Shown here in pieces: positions 1,905-50,530 of a DNA stretch of 64,000 bases; position 1 is the first letter of the stretch; each line of letters begins with the position of its first letter. The notes under the pieces are model-generated. The model worked only from the letters and a program-made list of their open reading frames with translations, was not told where the DNA came from and did no database searches. Location of the stretch: NCBI RefSeq assembly GCF_022919715.1, contig NZ_CP095042.1, forward strand, positions 3,968,001-4,032,000, given 5' to 3'. The DNA comes from Agromyces sp. H17E-10. GTDB lineage: Bacteria; Actinomycetota; Actinomycetes; Actinomycetales; Microbacteriaceae. A program made the translations under genes and the position numbers.

Positions 1905-2732
1905 GTGAGGTTCGTCGTGCACAACCGGCAGCTCACGGAGTCACGGACGACGATTCGCGACTACGTACCCGAGCAGCCACGGGGTTCCGCGTTGCTCTGG
2001 GTGCACGGGGGCGGCTTCGCCGGGGGCAGCATCGATATGGCGGAGTCCGATGCCGTTGCCCGTCAGCTGGCCGCTGGCGGTCGGCCGGTCCGAACGGTGG
2101 AGTATCGGTTGGCTCCGCCGTGGCCGGAGCACGGACCGCTCAACCTCAACCCTGCGCCGGGGCGCTACCCCGCCGCGCAAGACGACGTGACCACCGCCTT
2201 CCTCGACGTCGCACCGCACGGTGCAGCCTTCCTGGGCGGCGCAAGCGCAGGAGCCTGCATCGCTGCGAGCGTCGCCGTACGGTTGAGAGAGGAAGGCGGC
2301 CCGCCTCCGTTGGGCCTTGTGCTCGCGTACGGTGTGTTCCACGCGAGACTGCCGATGCCGACCGGCGCGGAAGACGATCCTCCGATGTCCCCGACGCACG
2401 CGCGGGCAGGGGAGTGGGTGGAGCGCATGACACTGAACTACGCGGGTTCGCGGGGGCTCCTCGCCGACCCGAAGGTGTTTCCAGGAGCCGGCGCCCCAAC
2501 CGGGCTCCCCGACACACTGATTCTGGATGCCGAGCGTGACAGCCTGCGTGCCTCGGGTCAGCGCTTCGCTGAACAACTCCGAGAATCCGGCGTCTGCGTC
2601 ACGGAGACAGTTGTTCCCGGCTCGTCGCATGGGTTCCTCAACGATCCGGTGAGCGGAGACTTCGAGCAGGGGATGCTCGAGATCACGCGCTGGCTCGAAC
2701 GAGTCGGAGCAGGGAACCGGCATGGCGCCTGA
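1905..2732 (+). CDS. alpha/beta hydrolase (hormone-sensitive-lipase-like esterase)
   Basis: A 275-residue protein starting at GTG 1905, chosen because AAAGGAG sits six bases upstream and homology-like sequence begins here. It carries the HSL oxyanion motif HGGGFAGG near residue 33, the nucleophile elbow GASAG, an acid in LDAERDS and a catalytic His in SSHGF. This is the complete Ser-Asp-His set of small carboxylesterases acting on acyl esters. It sits between a GH1 glucosidase and a kinase-fold protein, so it may remove acyl groups from imported glycosides; that role is inference from position. The stop overlaps the next gene by 11 bases. Confidence 0.85.
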   Translation: MRFVVHNRQLTESRTTIRDYVPEQPRGSALLWVHGGGFAGGSIDMAESDAVARQLAAGGRPVRTVEYRLAPPWPEHGPLNLNPAPGRYPAAQDDVTTAFLDVAPHGAAFLGGASAGACIAASVAVRLREEGGPPPLGLVLAYGVFHARLPMPTGAEDDPPMSPTHARAGEWVERMTLNYAGSRGLLADPKVFPGAGAPTGLPDTLILDAERDSLRASGQRFAEQLRESGVCVTETVVPGSSHGFLNDPVSGDFEQGMLEITRWLERVGAGNRHGA

Positions 2733-3696
2733 CACTCCTGGAGACCAGCCGCCGCTGGACGCACTGGTACGGCCGCTTGGGGAACTGCTCGATGCGGAAC
2801 CGTTGACCGGGGGCATGTTCGCTTCCACGTATCGTGTGACGCTCGACTCTGGCCTGCTGGTTGTGGTGAAGCTGACCGCCACAGATATCGGTGGACTCTG
2901 CCGCTACGAACGCGGCATCGCTCAGACCGAAGCGCGAACGTACACGATGCTCGCTCAGCACGAACTCCCAGTACCGGACCTGCTCCTCACGGACTTCTCC
3001 CGCACGATTGTCGACGCCGATGTTGTCGTGACGAGTCACGTCGCGGGGGCTCCGTGGAGTGAGTGCAACCTCGACAGAGTCGAAGCGGCAAGGGTCCGCC
3101 GTGGTCTCGGGAGCCTTATGGCCAGGATGCACCGCATTCACCCCCCGGCGTTCGGATACCCGGCACCGCAGGCGAACATGCGTGCGGCGACCTGGAGCGC
3201 CGCGTTCACCGCCATGGTCGACGGCATCCTCCAAGACGCGGCCAGCGCCAGCACGACCCTCCCCACTGCTGGCATCCGTGATGCGATGACTCGGCACGCA
3301 CCAGCCTTGGATGCGGTCAAACGGCCAGCCGTCGTGCACAACGACCTCTGGCCGGCGAACCTGTTCCTCGATCAGCGCGGGAGCATCACGGGCGTCATCG
3401 ACACTGAACGGACCGTGTGGGGGGATCCGCTGCTCGACCTCATCGGCGCCGACCAACTCGGACTATGGGACATCGACCCGGACCTCCTCGCCGGCAACTC
3501 GGCCGCTGGGGGTGTCCTCTCTACCGAACTCGGCTCGCCCACCGGAATCGTTCGGTTCGCGCTGTACCGCCTCTACTACTCGCTCATTCTCGCCACTGAG
3601 ATCGATATCCGTGGCTATGACGCCGAGTGGGTACCCGCACACCGCGAGCGAGCTCACACCCTCATCGATGCGTCGCTCGGCCGACTCTTGACCTAA
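2722..3696 (+). CDS. aminoglycoside phosphotransferase (APH) family kinase
   Basis: A 324-residue cytosolic protein of the APH/choline kinase fold. The nucleotide-binding lobe includes LVVVKL; the catalytic loop is VVHNDLWPANLF (HxDxxxxN) and the metal-binding segment is GVIDTERTVWGDP. Members phosphorylate small hydroxylated metabolites such as fructosamines, homoserine or choline as well as drugs. The VVHNDLWPAN segment plus a GDP motif is typical of the fructosamine-kinase-like branch. It is coupled to the upstream esterase by an 11-base overlap and belongs to the glycosidase operon, so a sugar or glycated-amine substrate is more likely than an antibiotic. Substrate is not determined. Confidence 0.8.
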   Translation: MAPDTPGDQPPLDALVRPLGELLDAEPLTGGMFASTYRVTLDSGLLVVVKLTATDIGGLCRYERGIAQTEARTYTMLAQHELPVPDLLLTDFSRTIVDADVVVTSHVAGAPWSECNLDRVEAARVRRGLGSLMARMHRIHPPAFGYPAPQANMRAATWSAAFTAMVDGILQDAASASTTLPTAGIRDAMTRHAPALDAVKRPAVVHNDLWPANLFLDQRGSITGVIDTERTVWGDPLLDLIGADQLGLWDIDPDLLAGNSAAGGVLSTELGSPTGIVRFALYRLYYSLILATEIDIRGYDAEWVPAHRERAHTLIDASLGRLLT

Positions 3697-5500: not shown

Positions 5501-6829
5501 ATGAGTGACCTGGATACGATCGTCGTGGGCGCCGGGGTTGCAGGGTTGACTGCAGCTCGGCTCCTCGCGCGGGCCGGTCGACGAGTGGTGGTGCTGGAGG
5601 CACGCGATCGGGTGGGTGGACGAGTCCACACTGAACGTGTCGATGGTTGGGTGACTGACCGTGGTGCGTCCTGGATCCATGGCATCAATGGCAGCCCGAC
5701 CACCGCTGCTGCCGAAGCGATCGGGATGCGGACCAAGGAGTACACCGTCGGCGGCTACCAGCCTGACAGCAGGCCGATCGCGTACTACGGGCCGGACGGG
5801 CAGCGAATGTCCGATGAGGAGGTCCAGCAGTTCGTTGACGATCTCACTGTGGTGGACGCCACGATTGTCGAGGAGATCGCGAATGCGGCGGCTGATGCTT
5901 CGTACCGCGAAGTGACCGAGGCAGCCCTGGAACGTCAGGGGTGGGACGAGTCGCGCACGCAACGCGTGCGCGAGTATGTGGATCACCGCCCCGAGGAGCA
6001 GTACGGCGTGCGCACGGCGGACTTGGCTGCACACGGGCTTGATGATGACAGCATCGATGGCATCGAAGTCGTGTTCCCCGACGGCTACGACCGGCTCCCG
6101 GCGCACTTGGCGCAGGGCCTCGACATCCGCCTCGGGCACGTTGTCTCCCAGGTGCACTGGTCGGAAAGCGGCGCGACGGTCACGACAACGAATGGTGATT
6201 TCACGGCGGGTTCGGTCGTCGTGACGGTTCCGGTCGGTGTATTGCAGTCGGACGACTTCGTCATCGAGCCGCCCCTTCCCGAGCCGATCGCCGGCGCACT
6301 CGGCCGCCTCAAGATGAACGCGTTCGAGAAACTGTTCCTCCGCTTCCCGTCCAAGTTCTGGGACGAAGAGGTCTACGCCGTCCGCCAACTGGGACCCGAA
6401 GGAGTCTGGTGGCACTCCTGGTACGACCTCACCGAAATGCACGGCACGCCGACCCTCCTCGTCTTTCCGGCCGGGCCCGCCGCCATCGAGACGCGGGACT
6501 GGCCGCAAGAGCGTGTCGTGGAGTCCGTACTCGCTCAACTGCGCCGACTGTACGGCGACCGCGTCGAACAGCCCGAGCATGTCGTGATGACGACCTGGCA
6601 GGACGACCCCTTTGCCCGGGGTTCGTACGCGTACATGACGGTGGGTTCGACCACAGCGGACCACGACGACCTCGCCACCCCAATCGGGGGCGGGGTGCTG
6701 CACCTCGCAGGGGAGGCTACCTGGACCGATGACCCGGCGACCGTCGCCGCAGCGCTCTACTCCGGCCACCGCGCCGCATCGAACATCCTGCACCAAGAGA
6801 TCCCGATCGAAGCCGCTTGGACCGACTGA
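5501..6829 (+). CDS. flavin-containing amine oxidase (polyamine-oxidase-like), copy 1
   Basis: A 442-residue FAD enzyme. I place the start at ATG 5501 because AGAAGGA lies about ten bases upstream and the FAD fold begins at once ([15 protein letters not shown], then [11 protein letters not shown]). GASWIHG with a following Asn-Gly-Ser-Pro is the signature seen in polyamine and spermine oxidases. The C-terminal LHLAGEATW and [14 protein letters not shown] close the FAD site. It should oxidise a secondary or primary amine to an imine/aldehyde with release of H2O2. An upstream in-frame ATG at 5447 is possible but lacks support. A strong terminator follows. It is paired with the APC permease upstream. 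Confidence 0.9.
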
Positions 6830-8183: not shown

Positions 8184-8672
8184 TCAGTCGGGCACGGCTC
8201 CCCATGCGAAGCGGTGCGTGTGGGTGCGGTAGTACGTGAACGTCTCGACCGCACGTACTCCGGGGATCGTGCGGAGGTGACGGTTGATGATCTCGTAGAG
8301 TTCGTCGGAACTGCTTGCGATCACTTCGACGAGGAGATCGACCGAACCCGCGGCGAGGATGACGTAGATGACGCCGTTCACTCGTCCGATCGCATCGGCG
8401 GCTTCGTCGATGTCGCCGTCGACGTTGATGGCGAGCATTGCCATATTGCGATAGCCGAGTCGAAGCGGATCTGTTACGCCGACGATCTGGAGGGTGCCGT
8501 CGTCCTGCAGCTTCAGGACTCGGGCGCGCGCCGCGCCGGCTGAGAGGCCTGTGGCGTCTCCGAGCTCGGAGTACGAGAGGCGGCCGTCCTTTTGCAGCAG
8601 CGTCAGTAGTTGTCGGTCGATCTCGTCGAGCCCGTAGTCGTGATTGCGTCCATGCGCGGGCTCGGTGTTCAT
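8184..8672 (-). CDS. Lrp/AsnC family transcriptional regulator
   Basis: A 162-residue protein, starting at the ATG complementary to 8670-8672 (MNTEPAHG); an earlier in-frame start at 8741 would run into the divergent promoter. An N-terminal winged helix (LDEIDRQLLTLLQKDGRLSY, then LGDATGLSAGAARARV) is followed by the RAM ligand-binding domain (IDEAADAIGRVNGVIYVILAAGSVDLLVEV). Lrp/AsnC proteins sense amino acids or amines and usually control the adjacent divergent gene. Here that gene is the kinase/aminotransferase fusion 97 bases away, so it probably responds to the substrate of that pathway. Confidence 0.93.
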   Translation of the reverse strand: MNTEPAHGRNHDYGLDEIDRQLLTLLQKDGRLSYSELGDATGLSAGAARARVLKLQDDGTLQIVGVTDPLRLGYRNMAMLAINVDGDIDEAADAIGRVNGVIYVILAAGSVDLLVEVIASSSDELYEIINRHLRTIPGVRAVETFTYYRTHTHRFAWGAVPD

Positions 8673-8769
8673 GTCAACCAGTATGACCCCACCGAGACGA
8701 CTGCATGCCGAATCAGCCTTGACAACATTGCTAGACTGCAAAATCAGCAGTGAAAGGCGGATTAGACAG
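8673..8769. promoter_or_regulatory. divergent lrp / fusion-gene promoter region with a direct repeat
   Basis: The 97-base gap between the divergent starts holds a perfect -35 TTGACA (8719-8724, plus strand). It also holds two copies of AATCAGC, at 8711-8717 and 8742-8748. The copies are 31 bases apart, about three helical turns, so they lie on one face of the DNA as expected for an oligomeric Lrp-type regulator. A clear -10 is not evident. Site function is inferred. Confidence 0.5.
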
Positions 8770-11664
8770 ATGAATCAATCGTGGGAGCTTCCTCGGCCGG
8801 TGATCGATGCTGTGTCCGCGAGCGAGATCGCGACGCGGACCTTCGGTATCGAAGGACGCGCGACCGAACTCGGGAGTCAGCAGGACCGGAATTTCCTCAT
8901 CGAGGAGGCCGGCGGTAGCCGCTGGCTCCTCAAGGTCAGCAACCCCGCGTTCTCTCAGGCGGAGATCGAGGCGCAGAACTCGCTCATGCGCCGTCTGCAC
9001 GAACGCGGCCTCGATGTTCCGCACCCCGCGCTCGCGATCGAGGGCGGCGATACAGCTTCTGTCGAACTCAGTGAAGGCCGCCATGTCGTCCGGCTGTTGT
9101 CGTGGGTGGATGGCACCCCGCTGATCGAGCGATCGCACCTGTCGGAGGAGGTGCTCGAGAGCGTCGGTGATCTCGTTGCGGACGTTAGCGTGGCGCTTGC
9201 CGGGTTCTCGCATCCGGGTCTTGACCGTGTCATCCAGTGGGATCTTCGTCGCGCGGGCGACGTGATTTTCGAGCTGCTGGGATTCGTTGGCGATCAAAGC
9301 CACCGGTCGGCGATCGAGGACGCGACCGTGCGGTCGCTCCGTGCGATCAAGCCGGTCGCGAACAAGCTTCCGGTCCAGCCCGTGCACGGTGATCTCACCG
9401 ACGACAACCTCGTGGTCGATCGTGAGGGCATGGTGGGTGGCATCATCGATTTCGGTGACGCCGTTGAGAGCTGGCGTGTCGCTGAACTCGTCATCGCCTG
9501 CAGCTTCGTTCTGCATCACGAGCCGAGCCGGCCGCTCGCCATTCTGCCGCTCGTTGCGGCGTTCGACCGGAAGGTTCGCCTTACGGACGAGGAGCTCAGT
9601 GTCATCTGGCCGCTGTTGGTGCTGCGAGGCGCGTCGCTCGTCGTGAGCGGACTGCAGCAGGTGAGTATCGATCCGCAGAACGATTACGCCCGAAACGCTC
9701 TCGAGCGGGAGTGGGCTGTGTTCGCGGCCGCCCACGATCGGGATGCCGATGCCATGACCGCGGCGATTCGTGCGGCGATTCGCCCCGACCCTGTTCGGCC
9801 GCGCGGATGGCATTCGCCTGGGCCGTTGGTTGACGGCATCAACGAGTTCGACGAGGTGGTGCTCGGCTATGACAGTCGAACTCTCGAAGCCGGGGAGTGG
9901 CTCGGTGACGCCGATGCTGTGGAAGCAATCCAACTCGGCAGAGTCGCTTCCCGCGGACTCGCCGTCACCCGCTTCGCCGAGCCGCGCCTTACCCGTGCCG
10001 GAGGTGCGGGACCTGAGGAGCCGGTCAACGTGCCGCTGTTCATCGACGTCGCCTCGCATGCGCCAGTCGAGCTCATTGCGCCGGTCGACGGGCGGGTCGA
10101 CGCCGACGGCGGGCTGATCACGCTCACGGCCGGCGAATACGCGCTCATCATCGAGGGCCAGCCACAGGAAAGAACCCATGAGGGTGAGATCAGCGCCGGC
10201 CAGCGGATCGCCGTGTTCGACGGACCGGTCAGGCTGTGGTATCTGCTGGTCGATCGTGCCGAGGCGATGGTGCGGCTTCCGCTCTTCGTGCGTCCGAGTG
10301 AAGCACCTGGATGGCTGACTGGGTTCCTTGACCCGACGCCACTCATCGTCGGGCACACGGGTCGCTCCAAGCTCACGGAGAAATCCGTCCTGACGCGGCG
10401 CACGGAATCGTATGCTCCGCTGCAAGGGCACTATTACCGGCGGCCGCCACGGATCGAGCGCGGATGGCGCGAGTTCATGATCGATGTCGACGGCCGCCAC
10501 TACCTCGACATGGTCAATAACGTGACCGTTCTCGGCCACGGTCACCCTCGGCTCGCTGAGGCCGTCGCCGATCAATGGCGCATGCTCAACACGAACTCGC
10601 GATTCAACTACGCCTCGGTCGCCGAATTCAGCGAACGCCTCCTCGAAACAGTCCCGGCTGCGCTTGACACCGTCCTCCTGGTGAACAGCGGCACGGAGGC
10701 CGTCGACCTCGCGCTGCGGCTGGCGCGTGCGCACACCGGGCGGAAGGCGGTCGCCTGCGTGAGCGAGTCATACCACGGATGGTCGGTCGCGGCAGATGCG
10801 GTCTCGACGAGCGTGTCGGACAATCCGCTCGCCGAGCAGACAAGGCCCGCATGGGTCCACGTGCTCGAGGCGCCGAATGCCTACCGCGGGCGATACCGCG
10901 GTGCAGACGCCGGAGATCGATACGCCCGCGACGCCGTCCGCCAGCTTGAGGAATGGGCAGCCGACGGGACTCCGATCGGTGCCTTCATCGCCGAGCCGCG
11001 CCACGGAAACGCCGGCGCCATCGAGGTGCCTGACGGCTACCTTCGCCAGGTCTACTCGGCCATCAGGGCCGGTGGCGGTCTGTGCATCGCCGACGAGGTC
11101 CAGGTCGGCTACGGCCGCCAAGGAGACGTGTTCTGGGGGTTCGAGCAGCACCCCGGCGTCGTCCCTGACATCATCACCGTCGCCAAGGCGATGGGCAACG
11201 GGCACCCGCTCGGAGCTGTGATCACTCGAGCCGACATCGCGGCGTCGCTCGCCGCGCAGGGCACCTTCTTCTCCTCGGCAGGTGGCAGCACCCTCAGCGC
11301 GAAGCTCGGCACGACAATCCTCGACATCATCCGTGACGAGCGGCTCCAGGAGAACGCCGCCGTGATGGGTCGCCGACTTCTCGACGGCTTTGCCAGCCTC
11401 GCGGAGCGCCACGAGATCATCGGTGCAGCCCACGGACGGGGGCTGTACCTCGGCCTCGAACTCGTCCGCGACCGGAACACCCTTGAACCCGCCACCTCAG
11501 AGACTCGCGCCCTCTGCGATCGACTCCTGCAGCTCGGCGTGATCGTCCAACCCACCGGCGACCGGCAGAACGTGCTGAAGATCAAGCCACCGCTGTGCAT
11601 CACCGCGGCGAGCGTTGACTACTTCCTCGAAGCGCTTGACCGGGCCCTCGGCGAGATCGTCTAG
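8770..11664 (+). CDS. fusion: APH-type kinase / M23-like domain / class-III aminotransferase-fold phospholyase
   Basis: A 964-residue protein with ATG at 8770 after GAAAGGCGG. Residues about 30-300 are a kinase domain: PVHGDLTDDNLV with D208 as catalytic base, IIDFGD with D227. Residues about 400-520 resemble an M23-peptidase/lipoyl-like fold (LIAPVDGRV, GEISAGQRI) but show no Zn-binding histidines. Residues about 560-960 are a PLP fold-type I, class-III aminotransferase domain with LVNSGTEAVDLAL, IADEVQVGYGR (D775) and TVAKAMGNGHPLG (PLP lysine K806). Animal relatives of the two ends are hydroxylysine kinase and the phosphoethanolamine/phosphohydroxylysine phospholyases. The likely reaction is phosphorylation of an amino alcohol, then loss of ammonia and phosphate to give an aldehyde. 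The exact substrate is unknown. Confidence 0.85.
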   Translation: MNQSWELPRPVIDAVSASEIATRTFGIEGRATELGSQQDRNFLIEEAGGSRWLLKVSNPAFSQAEIEAQNSLMRRLHERGLDVPHPALAIEGGDTASVELSEGRHVVRLLSWVDGTPLIERSHLSEEVLESVGDLVADVSVALAGFSHPGLDRVIQWDLRRAGDVIFELLGFVGDQSHRSAIEDATVRSLRAIKPVANKLPVQPVHGDLTDDNLVVDREGMVGGIIDFGDAVESWRVAELVIACSFVLHHEPSRPLAILPLVAAFDRKVRLTDEELSVIWPLLVLRGASLVVSGLQQVSIDPQNDYARNALEREWAVFAAAHDRDADAMTAAIRAAIRPDPVRPRGWHSPGPLVDGINEFDEVVLGYDSRTLEAGEWLGDADAVEAIQLGRVASRGLAVTRFAEPRLTRAGGAGPEEPVNVPLFIDVASHAPVELIAPVDGRVDADGGLITLTAGEYALIIEGQPQERTHEGEISAGQRIAVFDGPVRLWYLLVDRAEAMVRLPLFVRPSEAPGWLTGFLDPTPLIVGHTGRSKLTEKSVLTRRTESYAPLQGHYYRRPPRIERGWREFMIDVDGRHYLDMVNNVTVLGHGHPRLAEAVADQWRMLNTNSRFNYASVAEFSERLLETVPAALDTVLLVNSGTEAVDLALRLARAHTGRKAVACVSESYHGWSVAADAVSTSVSDNPLAEQTRPAWVHVLEAPNAYRGRYRGADAGDRYARDAVRQLEEWAADGTPIGAFIAEPRHGNAGAIEVPDGYLRQVYSAIRAGGGLCIADEVQVGYGRQGDVFWGFEQHPGVVPDIITVAKAMGNGHPLGAVITRADIAASLAAQGTFFSSAGGSTLSAKLGTTILDIIRDERLQENAAVMGRRLLDGFASLAERHEIIGAAHGRGLYLGLELVRDRNTLEPATSETRALCDRLLQLGVIVQPTGDRQNVLKIKPPLCITAASVDYFLEALDRALGEIV

Positions 11665-11674: not shown

Positions 11675-13291
11675 ATGGACATCGCCTTCACGAACGGCAT
11701 TGTGTACCTCGGTGCGGGTCTACCCGACACCGACCGGATGTTCGTGCGCGACGGTCGCATCATCGATTGGCCGGCGGAGGTCCCGCGCACCGCGCTGACG
11801 GTCGATCTCGGCGGCGGGTACCTCGGACCCGCGTTCGCGGACGGTCATGTCCACCCGATGCTCGCCGCCGCCGAACTGCGAGGTCCTCGCATCGGTCCGG
11901 CGAACACCGTCGAAGAGATCGGCACCATCGTCGCAGCCTGGGCGATTGACCACCCGGATGCCGAGTGGATCGTCGGAGGGAGCTACGACGCGACCATCGT
12001 CGAGGACAGTCGCTTCGACGCACGATGGCTCGACGCCGTCGTAGCAGACCGTCCCGTGGTGCTGAGGGCCTGGGACTACCACACCGTCTGGTGCAACTCG
12101 CGCGCCTTGGAACTTGCAGGCGTGACCTCGGCGACCCCTGACCCGCCGCTCGGCCGGATCGTACGGCGCGCCGACGGGACGCCGGAGGGAACGCTCCTCG
12201 AATCGGCGACGGCACTCGTTCTCGGAGTCGTTCCCGCTCCACCGCTGGCAGACCGGATCGACTCGCTCGTGAGCGCGGTCGAGATGCTGGCGGCGCGGGG
12301 GATCACCTGGGCGCAGGAGGCGTGGGCCGACGCTGACGACATCGAGGTGTGGGTCGAAGCGGCGCGATCCGGCCGACTCGTGGTCGACTTCGACATCGCC
12401 CTGCGCGCTGACCCTCTGCGCTGGCCGCAGCAGCTGGGAGAGCTCGAGGCGATGCGGGCGAAGATCGCCGAAGCGCCCGGCCTCACCGCCGATACGGTGA
12501 AGTTCTTCGTCGACGGCATCATCGAGAATCACACGGCGCACATGCTCGAGCGGTACGCGGATGCCTGTGATCACGGGCTTCCGAACTGGACGGCCGAGAC
12601 GCTCGCTCCCGCCGTCATCGACGTGGACACCCGTGGATTCGATATTCACCTGCATGCCATCGGCGATGCCGGAGTACGCAGTGCCCTCGACGCGATCGAA
12701 CGACTCGACGCGGTGAGCACTCGGGCGAACCGGCGTGCCACGATCGCCCATGCTCAAGTGATCCATCCGGCCGACCTCGAACGATTCGCCTCGCTCGGGG
12801 TGATCGCCTGCCTCCAGCCGCTCGCGGCCCGTGCCGACCCCGTGATGACCGACCTCACGATTCCGCGACTCGGCCCAGCTCGTGAGCTGCAGCACCAGAT
12901 GGGAGCCCTTCGAGCCGCCGGAACGACGATCAGCTTCGGGAGTGACTGGCCGGTCTTCGAGCCCGATGTGATCGCTGGGATGTGGACCGCTGTTCACCGG
13001 CAGAACCCGGACGGCACGCCCGTAGGTGGCTGGCAGCCGCAGGAGCGCCTGACCGTCGAGCAAGCCCTCGACGCGGCAACGGCGGCGGTGATGCAGAGTC
13101 GGAGGGGCGCGCTGGACGGTTCGCTCGCTGTCGGAGGCCGGGCCGATTTCGTCTGGCTGTCGAGCGATCCACGCTCCTTGACGACACATTCCCCCGAGTC
13201 GATCGAGGTCCTAGGTACGTGGCGCCGAGGCAGCCGCACCCACAGCGCGGGCGATGCTGCACGGCACCCCGGGAAGGAGGACGCCCAGTGA
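11675..13291 (+). CDS. YtcJ-type metal-dependent amidohydrolase
   Basis: A 538-residue enzyme starting at ATG 11675, ten bases after the fusion gene. The TIM-barrel metal site is visible as ADGHVHP (H58, H60). Later ligands sit in [11 protein letters not shown] and [12 protein letters not shown], with the terminal aspartate in ISFGSDWPV. This is the YtcJ branch of the amidohydrolase superfamily, which includes N-substituted formamide deformylase. It probably hydrolyses an N-acyl or N-formyl amine in the cytoplasm. Its position between the amine phospholyase fusion and an amine oxidase, with a GTGA overlap to the latter, supports a deacylation step before amine oxidation. Confidence 0.85.
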
Positions 13292-14639: not shown

Positions 14640-15671
14640 ATGTCGGACCACCTGGTAATCAGGGCCGCATCCAAGCGGGCATCGGACGCTGTGATCCCGC
14701 TCAGCAGTGCCCAACTGATCCGACGCCACCTCTCGAGTATCAAGCACGCGCTCCCGTACGATGCCGCCCAAGTTCTGGTCTTCGACCGCAGTACCGATCG
14801 CCATCGCCAAATGGCGCAGATCGGCTATCCGGCGGAGGTCGCCCGGGTGATGTGCGAGGAGTTCCCGAAACACTGGCCGCTGCCTGCCTGGGCCCCCGTG
14901 CTCGACGGTGACGATCTTCCGCCGACGATCAGTGCTGAGCAGGACCACCCCGGAAGCTTCCGCTACTCGACGATCTACCTCGAGTATCTGGCTCCCGCCG
15001 GGTTCCGTGACGGGCTCACCCTCGAACTCAACCATCGTGGCCGATACGTGGGGCTCGCCAACTTCTCGTCGTTCGAGGCAGCGTTCTATACCCTCGAGCT
15101 TCGGCGCCGGAGCCTCGCCTTCGCATCCCTACTCGGGCACGCCATCAGCGCGACGGCCCAGGACCTCGAGGCGATCCCCCTGAGCGCCAGGGCGAGCGTC
15201 ATCGACCAGCATCGAATGGTCAGCCCCATCGCCGGGCGGGTGCCGAGCAACCTGGTCGTGCGCGACGACTTCTTCGCTGCGCTCGCTCCGCTGTTCGACG
15301 CGCCGCACGGCGAGGTTGCGTTCCTCTGGGATGTCGATCGGCAGTGGTTCAGGGTCGTCGTGCGTCGCCAGAGCGACGACAGCCTCCCCGATCTGCAGCC
15401 CCTCGTGGTGATCGAGGCGCCGATCGAACGGCCGTCGGGACTGACGCCGACGGAGATCCGGGTGTTGACCCGGCTCATCACCTGCTCCTCGAACGAGATG
15501 ATCGCGAACTCCCTGGGCATCGGCATTCGCACCGTGCACACGCACATCTCGAGCATCCTCGCGAAGCTCAACTGCACCCGAAGATCCCAAGCCGTCGCCA
15601 GCGCCGTTCGCAACGGACTCTTCCGTCCGGAGGCTGCGCCGGACGCCTCCCTGGGCGATCTCATCCACTGA
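14640..15671 (+). CDS. LuxR-type regulator with N-terminal sensor domain
   Basis: A 343-residue protein. There is no receiver aspartate pattern at the N-terminus; residues 1-260 look like a GAF/PAS-type ligand or redox sensing region. Residues about 265-330 are a LuxR/FixJ helix-turn-helix: GLTPTEIRVLTRLITCSSNEM, then ANSLGIGIRTVHTHISSILAKLN. It lies directly upstream of the ribose-type ABC importer and in the same direction, with hairpins between, so it is the natural candidate regulator of that importer and the deacetylase. The inducer is unknown. Confidence 0.85.
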   Translation: MSDHLVIRAASKRASDAVIPLSSAQLIRRHLSSIKHALPYDAAQVLVFDRSTDRHRQMAQIGYPAEVARVMCEEFPKHWPLPAWAPVLDGDDLPPTISAEQDHPGSFRYSTIYLEYLAPAGFRDGLTLELNHRGRYVGLANFSSFEAAFYTLELRRRSLAFASLLGHAISATAQDLEAIPLSARASVIDQHRMVSPIAGRVPSNLVVRDDFFAALAPLFDAPHGEVAFLWDVDRQWFRVVVRRQSDDSLPDLQPLVVIEAPIERPSGLTPTEIRVLTRLITCSSNEMIANSLGIGIRTVHTHISSILAKLNCTRRSQAVASAVRNGLFRPEAAPDASLGDLIH

Positions 15672-15843: not shown

Positions 15844-16836
15844 ATGCAGACGAACACTCGTAGAGCCGCCGTCCTCCTCGGCCTGGCCGGCGTGCTCGCG
15901 CTCACGGCGTGCACCGGCAGCACCGAACCCGTCGGAAGCTCGAACGACACGAGCGATACGAGCAAAGGCGCTCTCGCCATGAGCTTCGCCGGGCTCGACA
16001 TTCCGATCTGGGTCGACCAGCTGGCGATCATGGAACCGATCATCAACGAGGCCGGTTACGAGTTCCTCAGCGACGATCCGGCCTGGGACATCCAGACCCA
16101 GGTCAACGACTGGGAGAACTGGATCCAGCGAGGCGACGTGAAAGCGATCATGGGCTATCCCGTGCAGTCGGACTCCATGGTCGCCGTGTCCGAGAAGGCG
16201 CAGGCTGCAGGCATCCCGGTCCTCGGATATGCCTCGACCTGGGACGGGATCTCGTACGGTGTTCTCCTCAACAACTATGAGGACGGCGTGCGCCTCGGCG
16301 AGGAGGCCGGCGAATGGATCAAGGAGAATGCTGACGGCAGCGGTGCGCAGCCTGTGGCGCTCCTCGGCTATTGGGACACGGATCTCGGCCGGGAACGCAG
16401 CGAAGGAATCGCGGACGGGCTCAAGAACAGCGGCGCGAACGTGGACGTCAACGAGATCTCGGTCATCAACCTCGACGACGGCTATGCGGCCGCCCAGACC
16501 CAGCTCGCCGCGGAACCCGATACGAAGATCTGGCTTGGAATGGCCTCTGAACCACTTCAGGGCGCGTACCAGTACCTCACCGATCAGGGCGTCGCCGAAG
16601 ACGACCCCACGTACCTCCTCGGTGCGCTCGACGCGACCGACGAGATCCTCGACATCGTCTCGATCGACGACTCGATCTGGCGGCTCAGCTACATCCTGCC
16701 CGCGAAGCAGCTCGCCGAAGCCAACGCCGAACTGCTGATCTCCGCGGCGGAGGGCGACGCTGCCGACGACATCGTCATCGAGTCCACCAAGGTCACCGCG
16801 GACAACGCTGCGGACTTCTACGTCGACCGGCAATGA
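15844..16836 (+). CDS. ABC importer substrate-binding lipoprotein (ribose/autoinducer-2 type)
   Basis: A 330-residue lipoprotein: Arg-rich start, hydrophobic stretch and lipobox LTAC with the modified cysteine at residue 23. The mature part is a periplasmic-binding-protein fold 1 domain (sugar-binding RbsB group), with MEPIINEAGYEF, KAIMGYPVQSDSM and an ALDATDEI segment near the hinge. It captures a small solute outside the membrane and delivers it to the permease encoded two genes downstream. The family classically binds sugars, but the neighbours (deacetylase, amine oxidase) make an aminated or acetylated compound possible. The stop overlaps the ATPase start by four bases. Confidence 0.88.
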   Translation: MQTNTRRAAVLLGLAGVLALTACTGSTEPVGSSNDTSDTSKGALAMSFAGLDIPIWVDQLAIMEPIINEAGYEFLSDDPAWDIQTQVNDWENWIQRGDVKAIMGYPVQSDSMVAVSEKAQAAGIPVLGYASTWDGISYGVLLNNYEDGVRLGEEAGEWIKENADGSGAQPVALLGYWDTDLGRERSEGIADGLKNSGANVDVNEISVINLDDGYAAAQTQLAAEPDTKIWLGMASEPLQGAYQYLTDQGVAEDDPTYLLGALDATDEILDIVSIDDSIWRLSYILPAKQLAEANAELLISAAEGDAADDIVIESTKVTADNAADFYVDRQ

Positions 16837-18344
16837 GCGGCACCAAGGACACCCCCGTGTCGACGTTCCGCCTCGAGCTCAACGACGTCACCGTCGACTT
16901 CGGCGCCACCCGGGCTCTGGCAGATGTCTCCGCGCAGATCGGGCCCGGCGAGATCGTGGGTCTGCTCGGTCACAACGGCGCCGGCAAGTCCACGCTCTTC
17001 AACGTGCTGGCCGGAGTGATCAGGGCGAGCGCCGGCTCATTCCTCCTCGACGGCGAGCACGTCCCCGCCGACAGCACGCCCCGCGATGTCGCCGAGCTCG
17101 GCATCTCGATCCTGTACCAGGAGCCGGCGCTCGCCGCGAACCTCACGGTGTTCGAGAATCTCTGGCTCGCACAGCCCGCGAGGAAGGACAAGACGGACCG
17201 CCGACGCGTGGCCGAGGAAGCGCTCGGCCGCGTCGGTGCCGAGTTCGGTCTCGATCTGCCCGTTGCCAGCCTGACTCTCGGCGAGCGGCAGATGGTCGGG
17301 CTCGCACGCGGTCTGCTGGGGCGGGAGATCCGGGTGCTGCTGCTCGACGAGCCGACCGCGGCGCTCGGACGGCAGGAGACCGACGCGTTGCATCGGATCA
17401 TCCGGCGCCTCGCTCAGTCGGGCACGACCGTCATCTACGTCTCGCACCGGCTGCCCGACATCCTCTCGGTCTGCGAACGGATCCTCATCCTCTCGGGCGG
17501 TCGCCTCGTCGCCGATGAGTCGGCCGCGTCCTTCACGCCGCAGCGGCTGGCGCGAGCACTGGCACCGGGGCTCATCGTCGCCGAGTGGGAGGAGCCGCGC
17601 ATCGGCGAACCCAGCCTCGAGGTGACGTTCGGTTCTGAGCGCGTCACAGCGCACCGTGGCGAGGTCCTCGGGTTGTTCGGGATGGCCGCCGGGGAACAGT
17701 TCGACCTCGTCGAACGGGTTTTCGGGGTCCGTGGGCGAGCGACGTTCACGCTACGAGGGCGGCAGACGAGGATCGCCAGTCCGCACCAGGCGATGCGGCG
17801 CCGCGTGCACCTGGTGCCCGCCGACCGAGAACGCGACGGGCTCATTTCCGGGATGGGAGCCGCGGAGAACGTCTTCCTCCCGTGGCACGGTCTGCTCGGG
17901 CGGAGTTGGTGGATCAACCCGCGTTACGGGGCGACGGCGTACGAGACCGCTCGGCACGAACTCGGCATCCTCGGACCCGGGGGAGTGGAGCCCATCGACG
18001 AGTTCTCAGGCGGCAACCGCCAGAAGCACCTGCTGGCGCGGTGGATGTCCGTGCGAACGCCCGACGTCCTGCTGCTCGCACAGCCGACACAAGGCGTCGA
18101 CGTCGGCGCCAAAGCCGACATCGCGCGGGCCGTCAGGCGTCTGGCCGCGACCGGGGCGACGGTGGTGGTCGCGTCCGCCGAGTCGGATGAGATCGCCAGC
18201 CTCTGCGATCGCGCCTACGTCCTGCTCGCGGGAGCTGCCCGCGAGGTGACCCGCACTCCTGATTTCGACGAGCAGCTACTCACCACACTGCTCGCGCTCG
18301 CCGCCGACGCACCGACGCGTCAACCGGAAGGACCGACCCGATGA
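16833..18344 (+). CDS. ABC importer ATPase, tandem nucleotide-binding domains (RbsA type)
   Basis: A 503-residue protein with two ABC domains. The first has an intact Walker A GHNGAGKST, a signature LTLGERQMVGLA and Walker B LLLDEPTAALG. The second is degenerate: the P-loop position reads GMAAGEQ without the lysine, and Walker B reads LLLAQPTQGVD, lacking the catalytic Glu. FSGGNRQKHLLARW is a good signature. RbsA-type proteins often have a degenerate second site, so ATP is probably hydrolysed only at the composite site using the first P-loop. Overlaps of four bases with both neighbours indicate tight coupling with the binding protein and permease. Confidence 0.92.
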   Translation: MSGTKDTPVSTFRLELNDVTVDFGATRALADVSAQIGPGEIVGLLGHNGAGKSTLFNVLAGVIRASAGSFLLDGEHVPADSTPRDVAELGISILYQEPALAANLTVFENLWLAQPARKDKTDRRRVAEEALGRVGAEFGLDLPVASLTLGERQMVGLARGLLGREIRVLLLDEPTAALGRQETDALHRIIRRLAQSGTTVIYVSHRLPDILSVCERILILSGGRLVADESAASFTPQRLARALAPGLIVAEWEEPRIGEPSLEVTFGSERVTAHRGEVLGLFGMAAGEQFDLVERVFGVRGRATFTLRGRQTRIASPHQAMRRRVHLVPADRERDGLISGMGAAENVFLPWHGLLGRSWWINPRYGATAYETARHELGILGPGGVEPIDEFSGGNRQKHLLARWMSVRTPDVLLLAQPTQGVDVGAKADIARAVRRLAATGATVVVASAESDEIASLCDRAYVLLAGAAREVTRTPDFDEQLLTTLLALAADAPTRQPEGPTR

Positions 18345-19405
18345 GACTCTCCTCTTCGATGACCCTCTTCTTCGCCAAGAACGGGATCTTCGCCGCACTG
18401 CTGCTCCTGATCGCCCTCTTCGCGATCCTCAACCCGAACTTCCTCACCCTCGGGAACGCGCAGAACATCCTGCTGCAGTCCGCAGAACTCGGCATCATCG
18501 TGGTCCCGCTCGCATTCCTCGTGATGTCGGGCTCACTCGACCTCTCGGTCGGTTCGGTCGCGTCGGCTTCGGCCGTCACCGCCGCCCTCGTGATGGCGTC
18601 GACGGGCAACACGATTCTCGGCATCTTCGTCGCGATCGGTCTCGGGGCCTTCGCCGGCGCGGTCAACGGATTCCTGATCGCCTACCTGCGCCTGAATCCG
18701 ATCGTCATCACCCTCGGCTTCCTGAGCATCTGGGGTGGCTTCGCGCAGGTGATCACGGGGGGCAAGACCGTACAGCGATCGAGCCTGCCCGAGGAGTTCC
18801 GGGCGATCGGCACGGCGACCATCGGCCCGGTGCCGATCCAGATCGTCCTGCTCGTGCTCACCGTTGCCCTCGGAGGGTACTTCCTGCGCCGTCATCGCCT
18901 CGGCAAGGAGGTCCTCGCCATCGGCGGCAACGAGCGCGCCGCCCACCTGATGGGCATCAACGTCGTTCGGCGCAGGTTCGAGCTGTTCATCGTCTCCGGC
19001 GTGGCTGCCGCGATCGCCGGAGTGATGCTCACCGCGAAGGTGCAGTCCGCGAGCCCGGTGATCGGCGCAGGAATGGAGCTCCAGGCGCTCACCGTCGTGC
19101 TGCTCGGTGGCGTCGCCTTCGAGGGCGGCATGGGCCGGATCTCGGGTGTGGTGGCCGGCCTGCTGTTCTTCAAGGTGCTGAGCAACGGCCTCGTGTTCCT
19201 TCAGGTGTCGCCGTTCGTGCAGACGATCCTCGTCGGTGCGACCCTTGTCGTCGCCGTCGCGCTCGACAGCTCGATCCAGCGGATGGTCAAGCGTGCCTGG
19301 GCGCAGAGGGGGCGCCGAGCGATCTCGAGACAGCCGGATGAGCCAGGCGACGATCAAGCCAACCATGACGAACTCACCCCGAACACGCACGGAGGACGCG
19401 CATGA
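18341..19405 (+). CDS. ABC importer permease (RbsC type)
   Basis: A 354-residue integral membrane protein with about ten hydrophobic helices and the branched-chain/ribose permease signature (LVMSGSLDLSVGSVASASAV; IGGNERAAHLMGINVVRRR, the cytoplasmic coupling loop; GVAFEGGMGRISGVV). It forms the channel of the importer, probably as a homodimer. The C-terminal 30 or so residues after the last helix are polar and acidic (DEPGDDQANHDE). The ATG overlaps the ATPase stop, and its own stop overlaps the deacetylase start, so all four genes form one transcript. Confidence 0.92.
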   Translation: MRLSSSMTLFFAKNGIFAALLLLIALFAILNPNFLTLGNAQNILLQSAELGIIVVPLAFLVMSGSLDLSVGSVASASAVTAALVMASTGNTILGIFVAIGLGAFAGAVNGFLIAYLRLNPIVITLGFLSIWGGFAQVITGGKTVQRSSLPEEFRAIGTATIGPVPIQIVLLVLTVALGGYFLRRHRLGKEVLAIGGNERAAHLMGINVVRRRFELFIVSGVAAAIAGVMLTAKVQSASPVIGAGMELQALTVVLLGGVAFEGGMGRISGVVAGLLFFKVLSNGLVFLQVSPFVQTILVGATLVVAVALDSSIQRMVKRAWAQRGRRAISRQPDEPGDDQANHDELTPNTHGGRA

Positions 19406-20520
19406 CCCGCAACACCGGATACGTCTGGCACGAACGCTACGCCTGGCACGACACCGGGACGTTCGCGGGCATCGTCCCGCCCGGACCGACCGTGCAGCCG
19501 TTCCACAACTTCGAATCGCCCGAGTCGAAGGCGCGGCTGAACAGCCTCGTCGAGGTCAGCGGGCTCATCGAACGACTCACTCCGATCCGGCCCCGACCGG
19601 CCACGGAAGAGGACGTGCTCCGCGTGCACACCGCTCGCCACGTCGAGCACATCCGCTCGCAGAGCCTCCTGCCACTCGGCGACGCCGGCGACGGCTGGTC
19701 TCCGTTCGGGCGCGGCGGATACGAGATCGCGATGCTCGCGGCCGGTGGCACCATTTCGGCGACCGAAGCAGTGCTGAGCGGTTCCGTCGACAACGCGTAC
19801 GCGCTCGTCCGACCGCCGGGACACCACGCGGAGCGCGACCTGGGTATGGGCTATTGCCTGTTCGCGAACATCCCGATCGCGATCGAAGTCGCCCGCGCCC
19901 GGTACGGCGTCGAGCGGGTGGCCGTCGTCGACTACGACGTGCACCACGGCAACGGCACCCAGCACATCTACGAGGACGACCCTGATGTTCTCGCGATCTC
20001 GCTCCACCAGGAGTTCCTCTTCCCGCAGAACACGGGGAGCGCAGCTGAGATGGGAGTCGGTCGCGCCGAGGGGACGACCATCAACGTTCCGCTCCCTGCC
20101 GGCAGCGGCAACGGCGCCTACCTGGCATCGTTGCAGCGAGTGGTCCTCCCGGCGCTCCGCGCGTTCCGGCCGCAGCTCGTGATGGTGGCGAGCGGGTTCG
20201 ACGCCTCGGCCGTCGATCCGCTCGGCGGGATGACCGTGACGGCGAGCGCCTATCGGGCCATCGCCGAGAACCTCGTGGACGTCGCCGAGGAAGTCTGCGA
20301 CGGGCGGATTGTGTTCTCGCACGAGGGCGGCTACTCGCCGGTCTACGTCCCCTACTGCGGACTCGCGGTGCTCGAGGCGATGAGCGGTATCGAGACAGGC
20401 GTGCTCGACCCGTACGCCTTCTCGTTCGAGAACTCGCCGGCGCACCAGCTCAAGCCGTGGCAGGACGACGTCATCGCCGAGGCCGAGGTGCTGGCCCGCA
20501 GGCTCGGCCTCGTGGTCTGA
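19402..20520 (+). CDS. histone-deacetylase-superfamily amidohydrolase (acetylpolyamine amidohydrolase-like)
   Basis: A 372-residue class-II-HDAC-fold enzyme. Catalytic features are intact: RPPGHHAERD holds the paired histidines, DYDVHHGNGTQ gives the first Zn ligands (Asp, His), GFDASAVDPLGG gives the third Zn aspartate and HEGGYSPVY holds the transition-state tyrosine. Bacterial members deacetylate acetylated polyamines or other small N-acetyl amines. It is translationally coupled to the ABC importer (ATGA overlap), so it probably deacetylates the imported compound. The product could feed the amine oxidase or kinase-phospholyase encoded upstream. Substrate is inferred from family and context only. 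Confidence 0.85.
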   Translation: MTRNTGYVWHERYAWHDTGTFAGIVPPGPTVQPFHNFESPESKARLNSLVEVSGLIERLTPIRPRPATEEDVLRVHTARHVEHIRSQSLLPLGDAGDGWSPFGRGGYEIAMLAAGGTISATEAVLSGSVDNAYALVRPPGHHAERDLGMGYCLFANIPIAIEVARARYGVERVAVVDYDVHHGNGTQHIYEDDPDVLAISLHQEFLFPQNTGSAAEMGVGRAEGTTINVPLPAGSGNGAYLASLQRVVLPALRAFRPQLVMVASGFDASAVDPLGGMTVTASAYRAIAENLVDVAEEVCDGRIVFSHEGGYSPVYVPYCGLAVLEAMSGIETGVLDPYAFSFENSPAHQLKPWQDDVIAEAEVLARRLGLVV

Positions 20521-33961: not shown

Positions 33962-35392
33962 TCACACTGCCCGATTCGGCGCGGAATGTTCGGGCTCTTG
34001 GACTCCAGCCTGCCGGAATTGGCGCCAGGCCGTACGGGCGAGCCAGAGTTCGGAGAGATCCTTCGTTCGGCGAACGCTCCGCCCGGTGATCGCCTCGACC
34101 TGATTCAGACGGTAGACGAGCCCCTGCCGATGCATGCCGAGGGCAGCGGCAGTACGGTTCCAGTGGAGGTCGTTCTCGAGGAACTCGAACAGTGTCTCGC
34201 GCAGGGCGACGTAACGTGGTTCGTCTCCCGATAGTGGCCCGAGGACGGTCGCCACGATCTGGGCGGCTTCGGATCGTGAGCGGGAGACGAGGGAGACTCG
34301 CTCACCGCGGAACTCGCGCCAGTGTGAGCCTCGGCCCCACACCTCCGCGTGTTCCGCCGTGGCCTCCGCGATGGCTCCGGATACGTCTCCGAGATCGCGA
34401 TGTTCGGCTGATACACCCGACTCGGGGCAGAGCTCCTCCACGATCCTTCGCACTCCATCAATCTCGTGCGCCGGGGCGATGATGAGGATCCGTCCATCGG
34501 TATCGATCGCCGCGGTCGAGAGGCCTGCGATCGCCAGAGCCATCTGCAGTCGCAGTGGTATCGCGCAGGTAGTCGCGATCGCACGGAATGCGCCGGAGTC
34601 GCTCGCCCAGAGGCGCCGGAGCTCGGCGCGGGAGTCCTGTCGTCCTTCCAGAGCCCGCTCGAGCGCTGCGACGCCGGCGTCGATTCGCGCCATCGCCTGC
34701 TGCGCAGCCACAGTCGCGTCGACCGCGAGGATCTGCGCAAGATGAACCAGGGTGAGGCTGTCAAGCGGTGCGTCGGCATCGATCAAGAGATGCGTCGGGC
34801 GATGCGTGCGCAGTGCATAGGCCCGCGAGCCGGCAGGGCCGAGGAGACCGCGGCCGATGAGCACGCAGCCGGTCGCATCGTCGACGACCGTGAGACGAAC
34901 GCCGAGTATCTCGCCGAGATCGTCCGCGGAGCGTCGCTGGTCGTGGTGCCGCAGGCCTGCGACCTGGTAGAGCTTGGCGAGTCTGAGAACCCCCATGGTC
35001 TGCCGCTCCGCGTTTGCGGCCGCGACGGTTCGCCCGATCGCTGCGAATGGGGTGTGCGGTCCGGTCGTGAGGACGGGGAAACGTCGGGCGGCGGCTTCGG
35101 CGAGCATCGCCTTCGTGAGGCGCGGGGCGAGCCCGTCATCGCCGACCGCGATGCCGGCGAGCCCCGCGTCGTCGAGCCGGGCGATGAAGTCACGCTGGCG
35201 CTGGGCACCCTTCGGGATGCAGAGGCCGATCGTCATCAGCAGCTCGTGCGGTCCGAGCCACTTGTCCGGATTCGCCATCTCGCAGGAATGCGCCCACAAC
35301 ACAGTGCGATCGGCACCTTCGGCACCGCTCAGCACTCGCGTGTCCAGCGTCGGATCGCTGACCAGGTCGGCGATCGTGAAAGTCGACGGCAT
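33962..35392 (-). CDS. PucR-family transcriptional regulator
   Basis: A 476-residue protein; ATG preceded by GAAAGGTG. Residues about 1-135 are the PucR sensor domain (IADLVSDPTLDTRVLSG, NPDKWLGPHELLMTIGLCI). A GGDEF-like middle region follows. The C-terminus is the HTH_30 domain (FLENDLHWNRTAAALGMHRQ, then GLVYRLNQVEAITGRS). PucR proteins commonly activate purine, polyamine or amine catabolic genes. It is divergent, with 130 bases between, from potA and the polyamine uptake/oxidation genes, and is the prime candidate for their activator. Confidence 0.9.
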   Translation of the reverse strand: MPSTFTIADLVSDPTLDTRVLSGAEGADRTVLWAHSCEMANPDKWLGPHELLMTIGLCIPKGAQRQRDFIARLDDAGLAGIAVGDDGLAPRLTKAMLAEAAARRFPVLTTGPHTPFAAIGRTVAAANAERQTMGVLRLAKLYQVAGLRHHDQRRSADDLGEILGVRLTVVDDATGCVLIGRGLLGPAGSRAYALRTHRPTHLLIDADAPLDSLTLVHLAQILAVDATVAAQQAMARIDAGVAALERALEGRQDSRAELRRLWASDSGAFRAIATTCAIPLRLQMALAIAGLSTAAIDTDGRILIIAPAHEIDGVRRIVEELCPESGVSAEHRDLGDVSGAIAEATAEHAEVWGRGSHWREFRGERVSLVSRSRSEAAQIVATVLGPLSGDEPRYVALRETLFEFLENDLHWNRTAAALGMHRQGLVYRLNQVEAITGRSVRRTKDLSELWLARTAWRQFRQAGVQEPEHSAPNRAV

Positions 35393-35522
35393 GTTTCACC
35401 TTTCGTATGGAAAGTGGTGTGACTCTAGCAGCTCGTACAGTATGCCTTGCCCCGCGGAATTCGTAGTGTGGACGACGCGAGGCCGGATCCGGTCATCGCG
35501 ACGACATCAAAGGAGATGGACG
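35393..35522. promoter_or_regulatory. divergent pucR / potA promoter region
   Basis: A small inverted repeat CTTTC (35400-35404) and GAAAG (35410-35414) abuts the pucR start. GTACAGTATG near 35434-35443 offers a weak -10 for potA, and AAAGGAG (35509-35515) is the potA ribosome site. The repeat is a possible PucR or autoregulatory site. I see no stronger signal. Confidence 0.35.
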
Positions 35523-36761: not shown

Positions 36762-36788
36762 ACAACGACATCACACCAGGAGGCTCAG

Positions 36789-39851: not shown

Positions 39852-39936
39852 CCGGCACGCACCGCACCGAACGGCCACCGATTACCCGTCGCAGGTCCGT
39901 ACGTCCGCGACTGCCAGGACATCGAAGGAGAGAAGA

Positions 39937-41175: not shown

Positions 41176-41528
41176 CTGGATTCGTCGCTACCCGATTCGA
41201 GCACTCGGCCATCGACTGGCCGGACGACGTTGCGATTGCCGCCGACCGAGTCCTGAAGGGCACGCCGACGGCGTCCACGTTCGTCATCGAGGACGCTTCC
41301 ACCCACCAGCTCGGACTGTGGCGTGTCACTCCTGGCGAATTCGTCACCGATCATGCGGGCTACCTGGAGTACATCCACGTCCTATCCGGGACTGGCCGGC
41401 TCATCGACGAGGGCGGTGTCGCGCTCGATCTCGGCCCCGGCGTCACCGTGCTCATGCAGCCCGGCTGGAGGGGCCGTTGGGTCGTCCACGAGACCATCAC
41501 CAAGGCGTACACCGTGATCAACTCATGA
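41172..41528 (+). CDS. small cupin protein (Cupin_3/DUF861-like), copy A
   Basis: A 118-residue single-domain cupin: [20 protein letters not shown] (first motif, with His and Glu), then [20 protein letters not shown] (second motif) and [11 protein letters not shown] at the end, matching Cupin_3 proteins related to EutQ and ureidoglycine aminohydrolase. It overlaps the amine oxidase stop and the dehydrogenase start (ATGA on both sides), so it is made in step with both. Whether it is an enzyme acting on an amino-aldehyde intermediate or a sensor is unknown. Confidence 0.85.
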
Positions 41529-43015: not shown

Positions 43016-43045
43016 AACCACACCTTACGAAGGAGCTATCAACAC

Positions 43046-44757: not shown

Positions 44758-44786
44758 CCTGACTCACTCGATCCTGCCGCGTTCTC

Positions 44787-50508: not shown

Positions 50509-50530
50509 GTGGATTCGGTCCCTTCGTCAT

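What the first reader, a model, noticed from the sequence alone, without database searches (positions are those of the whole stretch)
8184..11664. Lrp-controlled kinase / M23-like / aminotransferase-fold fusion: a one-protein amino-alcohol degradation enzyme
One 964-residue chain carries an intact APH-type kinase (D208, D227) and an intact class-III PLP domain (D775, K806), separated by an M23-like fold that has lost recognisable metal ligands. Relatives of the two ends are hydroxylysine kinase and phosphohydroxylysine/phosphoethanolamine phospholyases. This predicts phosphorylation then ammonia-plus-phosphate elimination within one polypeptide, with the dead middle domain acting as spacer, binding or channelling module. 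The coupled amidohydrolase and amine oxidase suggest the substrate arrives N-acylated and is not simple ethanolamine.
Basis: partly seen in the sequence, partly recalled or inferred. Interest (0 to 1): 0.7.

Follow-up and report, generated by a model that had tools for sequence, protein, structure and literature searches.

The report
Fused kinase and phospholyase, Lrp-linked
This gene encodes a real but already catalogued bacterial fusion protein that probably adds a phosphate to a small amino alcohol and then removes phosphate and ammonia to leave an aldehyde, with a worn-out peptidase-like domain in between; its database family is named only 'aminotransferase'.

Summary
Window 8770-11664 encodes 964 residues: an intact APH-type kinase, a degenerate M23/LytM domain, and an intact class-III PLP domain. 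It belongs to an existing NCBI full-length family (NF004800/PRK06149, 'aminotransferase'; 1195.7 bits, cut-off 973). One sister-family record is already named 'hydroxylysine kinase /5-phosphonooxy-L-lysine phospho-lyase'. The architecture is known; I found no test of the function.

New here. The PLP domain shares one fully supported branch with human ETNPPL and Arthrobacter phospholyase A1RDF1, apart from 23 other class-III proteins. Kinase and lyase also occur as neighbouring genes, or fused without the middle domain. The middle domain is M23-derived: sister family PRK06148 keeps the M23 ligand pattern in 115 of 120 listed proteins, this family in 0 of 120. An Lrp gene is a recurrent close neighbour (26 of 80 loci). 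The 97-bp gap holds two AATCAGC-type repeats 31 bp apart, as in Microtetraspora; that 12-base pattern has no other exact match in the genome.

Best reading: phosphorylation, then elimination of ammonia and phosphate, on a terminal beta-amino alcohol. Substrate unknown; amine genes nearby make a hydroxylated diamine a candidate, but that linkage is sporadic in relatives.

The parts
8770..11664 (+). Fusion gene: kinase - degenerate M23 - phospholyase-type PLP domain, 964 aa (P0001)
   Evidence: NF004800 1195.7 bits vs cut-off 973 over the whole length
8866..9525 (+). APH-type kinase domain (residues 33-252); K55, H206, D208, N213, D227, D230 invariant in 73 aligned proteins
10015..10263 (+). Degenerate M23/LytM domain (residues 416-498), metal ligands lost
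10456..11649 (+). Class-III PLP domain (residues 563-960) with the phospholyase-type signature N583 N584 V585, R611, K937, K939; catalytic K806
8184..8672 (-). Lrp/AsnC regulator (AsnC-type HTH and ligand-binding domain), divergent; ATG at 8672
   Evidence: relative adjacent in 26 of 80 related loci
8706..8722 (+). Proposed Lrp operator copy 1 (TGCCGAATCAGCCTTGA)
   Evidence: same pair with 31-bp spacing in L009
8737..8753 (+). Proposed Lrp operator copy 2 (TGCAAAATCAGCAGTGA), 31 bp from copy 1
11675..13291 (+). Amidohydrolase (Amidohydro_3), 10 bp downstream; probably co-transcribed
   Evidence: 48-49% relatives near the fusion gene in L019 and L072
13288..14517 (+). FAD amine oxidase, start overlaps the previous stop (GTGA)
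5501..6829 (+). Second FAD amine oxidase (start uncertain); 47-49% relatives lie within 740 bp of the fusion gene in L009, L079, L086, L087
3823..5340 (+). APC-type amino acid/amine permease; 40-43% relatives next to the fusion gene in L020, L021
6951..8078 (+). GNAT acetyltransferase; membership of the system uncertain
14640..15671 (+). LuxR-type regulator; membership uncertain
15844..19405 (+). ABC importer resembling ribose/arabinose importers, below their cut-offs (binding protein, ATPase, permease); membership uncertain
19402..20520 (+). Histone-deacetylase-like amidohydrolase; membership uncertain

Best explanation
A bifunctional catabolic enzyme. The N-terminal APH-type kinase phosphorylates the hydroxyl of a small compound that carries a neighbouring primary amine. 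The C-terminal PLP domain then eliminates ammonia and phosphate from that vicinal amino-phosphate and leaves an aldehyde, the chemistry of human ETNPPL. The middle domain is an M23/LytM domain that has lost its metal site and is probably structural or regulatory. The divergent Lrp/AsnC protein probably controls the gene through the paired AATCAGC repeats. Shown: architecture, intact catalytic residues of kinase and PLP domain, one branch with known phospholyases, loss of M23 ligands, Lrp linkage and repeat pair. Inferred: both activities, their order, Lrp binding, and the role of the middle domain. Substrate unknown; a terminal beta-amino alcohol, perhaps a hydroxylated diamine.
Against: No activity was measured, and my literature searches listed no characterised member. 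This family sits on a long branch (0.85), and placing it outside the other phospholyase-like sequences is not rejected (AU p 0.251), so it is not strictly bracketed by known phospholyases. It has its own letters at two signature columns (W671, S836 in 120 of 120, in 0 of 120 sisters), so substrate or reaction may differ. The kinase was not tied to an amino-alcohol kinase of known function. Aldehyde dehydrogenase is not a general neighbour (within 3 kb in 5 of 80 and 1 of 36 regions; anywhere in the stretch 11 of 80 and 4 of 36, against 2 of 28 controls). 54 of 80 loci show no Lrp relative at that threshold. The operator motif was read off two genomes after the fact, and no sigma-70-like promoter was found in the gap.
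Confidence: 0.75

Rival explanations
1. The PLP domain is an ordinary omega-transaminase of an amine, as the database name 'aminotransferase' says, and the kinase acts on something else or only regulates.
For: NCBIfam product name 'aminotransferase'; class-III fold; a vast majority of characterised class-III enzymes are aminotransferases (PMC8154272, passages).
Against: One branch with two known phospholyases and apart from 23 other class-III proteins; Lys in place of the Arg of dialkylglycine decarboxylase; kinase-lyase linkage in several gene arrangements.
Confidence: 0.12
2. The substrate is 5-hydroxylysine: kinase then 5-phosphohydroxylysine phospho-lyase, as one sister-family record is already named.
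For: Record name 'hydroxylysine kinase /5-phosphonooxy-L-lysine phospho-lyase [Dongia mobilis]' for P0143; an Lrp-type regulator (a family that often senses amino acids, recalled) beside the gene; homoserine kinases, which act on a hydroxy amino acid, as nearest outside kinase families.
Against: The name is an annotation in the sister family, not a test; the local genes handle amines rather than amino acids, as far as their families tell. Lysine-specific neighbours were not searched for.
Confidence: 0.2
3. The substrate is a hydroxylated diamine such as 2-hydroxyputrescine; phosphorylation and elimination would give 4-aminobutanal, oxidised to GABA. Neighbouring amidohydrolases open acylated or carbamoylated forms.
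For: Pararhizobium gene run with amidohydrolase, importer (ATPase over the polyamine cut-off, 396.3 vs 355.6), acetylpolyamine amidohydrolase (E 2.7e-126 to a solved one) and aguB (442.3 vs 410.25), and a partly annotated similar run in Rhizobium sp. RCAM05350; aminobutyraldehyde dehydrogenase (689.9 bits, cut-off 615) directly downstream in Kribbella; amine oxidases, a PotD/PotC-like importer and a dehydrogenase nearest to succinate-semialdehyde dehydrogenase elsewhere in the window, the last three below their cut-offs.
Against: Polyamine-type neighbours are sporadic: PotB/C-like genes within 3 kb in 1 of 80 and 0 of 36 regions; S. meliloti shows histidine-utilisation genes instead.
Confidence: 0.2
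4. The substrate is ethanolamine or 1-amino-2-propanol (ethanolamine-phosphate phospholyase type).
For: Closest solved relative is ethanolamine-phosphate phospho-lyase.
Against: ETNPPL groups with the sister family, not with this one (97/93); this family has its own W671 and S836.
Confidence: 0.2

Closest known systems
NCBIfam NF004800 / PRK06149 'aminotransferase'
   Same: Full-length match over the curated cut-off (1195.7 vs 973 bits)
   Different: Nothing found that sets the window protein apart; the family name hides the kinase and the probable lyase chemistry
NCBIfam NF004799 / PRK06148 (sister family)
   Same: Same domain order kinase - M23 - PLP; PLP domain on the same side of the supported branch
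   Different: M23 ligand pattern intact (115 of 120 by pattern; H443, D447, H498, H534, H536 invariant in 32 aligned); window protein scores 672.9 against a cut-off of 1128
Human ethanolamine-phosphate phospho-lyase ETNPPL (AGXT2L1, PDB 6tor)
   Different: The matched enzyme is the PLP domain alone (499-residue chain); the window family has its own W671 and S836; substrate not shown to be shared
Phospholyase A1RDF1 of Arthrobacter aurescens (PDB 5g4i)
   Different: PLP domain alone (446-residue chain); 31-32% identity; groups with the fusions and separate pairs without a middle domain (98/97)
Homoserine kinase (PRK05231, thrB_alt) and APH kinases
   Same: APH-type catalytic motifs
   Different: Only 33-38 bits; no evidence that homoserine is the substrate
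LytM domains without peptidase activity (EnvC, DipM, SpoIIQ; inactivity recalled)
   Different: Those act at the cell envelope or in sporulation (recalled); here the domain sits inside a metabolic enzyme

Membership tests
NF004800 (PRK06149) | Whole-protein score over the curated cut-off, full-length coverage | tested here: met
   1195.7 bits vs 973, profile 6-970 of 972
NF004799 (PRK06148) | Whole-protein score over the curated cut-off | tested here: not met
   672.9 bits vs 1128
PLP-dependent phospholyases (ETNPPL/A1RDF1 group) | On one supported branch with characterised phospholyases, apart from other class-III enzymes | tested here: met
   48-row side of a branch, support 100/100; strict bracketing not shown (AU p 0.251)
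PLP-dependent phospholyases (ETNPPL/A1RDF1 group) | Catalytic lysine and aspartate of the PLP site | tested here: met
   K806, D775
PLP-dependent phospholyases (ETNPPL/A1RDF1 group) | Elimination of ammonia and phosphate from an O-phospho amino alcohol | not testable with these tools
   needs an assay
Class-III transaminases | Arg at the position of dialkylglycine decarboxylase R406 (carboxylate binding, recalled) | tested here: not met
   K937 in this position; not all of the 23 other class-III proteins have Arg there either
APH-type kinases | Catalytic H-G-D...N and the D of the metal-binding motif | tested here: met
   H206, D208, N213, D227 invariant in 73; Pfam APH 88.2 bits
Hydroxylysine kinase | Closest relationship to characterised hydroxylysine kinase | not tested
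   no sequence of it was compared; no PDB match of the kinase part at E 0.001
Peptidase family M23 | M23/LytM fold | tested here: met
   profile alignment E 4.5e-6; structural matches of middling strength but of one kind
Peptidase family M23 | Metal ligands H-x3-D and H-x-H | tested here: not met
   0 of 120 relatives with H[LVIM]H; alignment shows other residues
Peptidase family M23 | Pfam PF01551 gathering score | tested here: not met
   no hit in the window protein at E 10
Lrp/AsnC regulators (8184-8672) | AsnC-type HTH plus ligand-binding domain | tested here: met
   PF13404 57.9 bits, PF01037 45.8 bits

The most novel reading that the evidence does not exclude
The ancestral enzyme was a three-step machine: an M23 hydrolase domain freed an amine from an acyl or peptide conjugate, the kinase phosphorylated it, and the lyase released the aldehyde. 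The sister family still does all three; the window family lost the hydrolase site, handed that step to separate amidohydrolases, and kept the dead domain as an allosteric or docking part. The amine is a hydroxylated diamine such as 2-hydroxyputrescine, giving 4-aminobutanal.
Probability: 0.08. Interest if true: 0.7.

Novelty: new member of a known kind. Interest (0 to 1): 0.42.

Why it matters
A widespread family named only 'aminotransferase' (17 of 60 genomes of the window's family; 32 of 345 of its class; both counts include the window genome) is probably a self-contained route from an amino alcohol to an aldehyde. Correct naming would change pathway predictions in many soil bacteria. The contrast between a sister family with intact M23 ligands and this one with none makes the role of a peptidase fold inside a metabolic enzyme directly testable.

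Tried and rejected
Literature: ten searches. None of the listed titles and abstract heads concerns the fused protein; two searches found nothing. I read passages of PMC8154272, PMC6776027 and PMC9283133, no paper in full. The founding paper on hydroxylysine kinase and the two phospholyases (Veiga-da-Cunha 2012) is not held; I recall, unverified, that it mentions bacterial fusions.

Ordinary transaminase: disfavoured, not excluded. Among the 23 other class-III proteins L113 has NNV and R at the signature columns and L106 has K at 937, but none has both lysine-type residues. 'Other' means not fused to this kinase; their neighbourhoods were not examined.

Polyamine linkage as a general rule: tested and not supported. 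PotB/C-like genes within 3 kb in 1 of 80 and 0 of 36 regions. The 28 control regions (other parts of such genomes) held PotA-like 6, fusion-like class III 3, ALDH 2, amidohydrolase 1, Lrp 1, aguB 1, amine oxidase 0. The two sets of near regions share some genomes and should not be added. One query meant as the window's PotA was a wrong-frame ORF (0 families); it can add no true hits, and PotA counts rest on the Pararhizobium protein.

Sigma-70-like promoters in the gap: none found in the window or in L009. A TTGACA at 8719 is not used as evidence. The 12-base pattern at one mismatch is no more frequent in the window than in shuffles (3 against 2.6 expected); the case rests on the pair, its 31-bp spacing in two genera, and the genome count of two exact matches. 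The pattern was made after seeing both gaps. The other Lrp-flanked gaps that I printed (L013, L041, L019, L046, L028, L031, L131) were looked at by eye only and do not show the pair.

Kinase against the PDB: no match at E 0.001; at E 10 only aminoglycoside kinases around the catalytic motif. The full-length model gave PLP-domain rows in the rows shown, so the kinase fold was not tested by structure. In one search the first row (CbpA, 5gt1) is not named as M23; of the next 15, six are named M23 or LytM and the rest (zoocin A, lysostaphin, Csd3, NMB0315, SpoIIQ, LECT2) are of that fold as I recall.

Rows left out: 73 of 120 hits were aligned for the model; 64 of 80 loci for the middle-domain model, after dropping near-copies and odd lengths; 32 sister proteins in A3; the tree used 18 of 120 and 16 of 120 of the two families; duplicated loci were counted once. 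Of the 12 'linked' tree rows, one is the second copy of the window genome, one a sister-family protein, and two (L120, L128) have no kinase found in their stretch. A tally of neighbour families by Pfam was prepared but not run.
Full report
What is there. The finding's coordinates hold two divergent genes: an Lrp/AsnC regulator at 8184-8672 (-) and a 964-residue fusion protein at 8770-11664 (+). Pfam sees an APH-type kinase (residues 33-252) and a class-III PLP domain (563-960). A full-length AlphaFold model is confident (mean pLDDT 90.1, pTM 0.88).

It is a known family. NCBIfam NF004800 (PRK06149, 'aminotransferase') matches the whole chain at 1195.7 bits against a cut-off of 973. The protein search scored 7997 candidates and 6694 passed E 0.001; only the best 120 are listed, all 890-1014 residues long, 119 of them with Pfam APH. 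At E 1e-100 it occurs in 17 of 60 genomes of the window genome's family, and at E 1e-150 in 32 of 345 of its class; the window genome is counted in both. In 289 genomes of the class of G001 (Alphaproteobacteria, judged by the record title of L053) one match is over the family cut-off. The window genome has a second copy (L089), over the same cut-off (1243.2 bits), whose kinase motif reads HLDLTDDN.

Kinase and lyase belong together. A search of 76 genomes of the class of G001 with the sister-family model, and 11 stretches taken from eight of them, show the same pair in several forms: a three-part fusion (G038:C9), fusions of about 775-825 residues without room for the middle part (G038:C3, G072, G017, G035, G062; two of these run to a contig end), separate neighbouring genes (G038:C4, G016, G043), and a middle-plus-lyase protein without a kinase in the same frame (G038:C10). 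This supports coupled activities and shows that the middle domain is not needed to join them.

Regulation. In 80 related loci, 26 hold a relative of the window's Lrp at E 1e-20 and all 26 lie within 401 bp of the fusion gene; the other 54 show none. In a second set it is 6 of 36 regions, in control regions 1 of 28 (the two near sets share genomes). The 97-bp gap holds two repeats, 8706-8722 and 8737-8753, 31 bp apart and 76% alike. The gap of Microtetraspora (L009), the closest relative, has the same pair at the same spacing. The pattern TGMNRAATCAGC has exactly two matches in the 4.25-Mb genome, both here. This is consistent with an Lrp operator; binding was not tested, the pattern was chosen after seeing both gaps, and seven other Lrp-flanked gaps do not show the pair by eye.

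Context and substrate. The fusion gene is followed after 10 bp by an amidohydrolase, which overlaps an amine oxidase; upstream lie a permease and a second amine oxidase. Relatives of these sit close to the fusion gene in other genera (amine oxidase in L009, L079, L086, L087; amidohydrolase in L019, L072; permease in L020, L021), so the local grouping has parallels, but they are sporadic. In Pararhizobium the gene starts a run of genes with an amidohydrolase, an importer whose ATPase passes the polyamine cut-off, an acetylpolyamine amidohydrolase and aguB; a partly annotated relative looks alike. In two Kribbella loci an aldehyde dehydrogenase follows directly; the one scored passes the aminobutyraldehyde dehydrogenase cut-off (L073). 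In S. meliloti the gene follows hutC and stands near a PRK06148 copy (1679.1 bits) that has an Lrp gene beside it. These clues favour amines, and 2-hydroxyputrescine would give exactly 4-aminobutanal, but no substrate is established.

Verdict. A correct and well-read observation of a known and widespread fusion for which I found no assay. What is worth keeping is the phospholyase placement, the intact-versus-dead M23 contrast between two sister families, and the candidate Lrp operator.

Noticed in passing
window 33962-46336: A second amine-related cluster: PucR-type regulator, PotABCD-like importer (PotA part 48% to the Pararhizobium one; PotD- and PotC-like parts below NCBIfam cut-offs), three FAD amine oxidases and an aldehyde dehydrogenase nearest to succinate-semialdehyde dehydrogenase, below cut-off. 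L149 has an amine oxidase and a 66-67% relative of that dehydrogenase near its fusion gene.
   Followed up: partly
L089:8676-11741 (own genome 2590676-2593741): A second PRK06149 copy in the same genome, 1021 aa, with an altered kinase motif (HLDLTDDN) and, by eye, LuxR-like genes beside it.
   Followed up: partly
L119 and proteins P0121-P0240: Sister family PRK06148 keeps the complete M23 ligand pattern inside a kinase-PLP enzyme; a possibly active metal hydrolase in a metabolic fusion, function unknown.
   Followed up: partly
L130:5209-13753: S. meliloti pSymB carries both families 1.2 kb apart, the window-type gene directly after hutC and the sister gene (1679.1 bits, over cut-off) beside an Lrp gene.
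   Followed up: partly
window 19402-20520: Histone-deacetylase-like amidohydrolase (best solved relatives: histone deacetylase-like amidohydrolase, dimethoate and propanil hydrolases), at the end of the ABC importer genes.
   Followed up: partly
window 2722-3696: A separate APH/fructosamine-kinase-like protein just upstream of the permease.
   Followed up: no
L009:7749-7764: A third, one-mismatch copy of the proposed Lrp motif about 0.3 kb upstream of the amine oxidase gene in Microtetraspora.
   Followed up: no
window 47101-55737: Two large rhamnosidase-type proteins of different families (Glyco_hydro_106 and Bac_rhamnosid).
   Followed up: no
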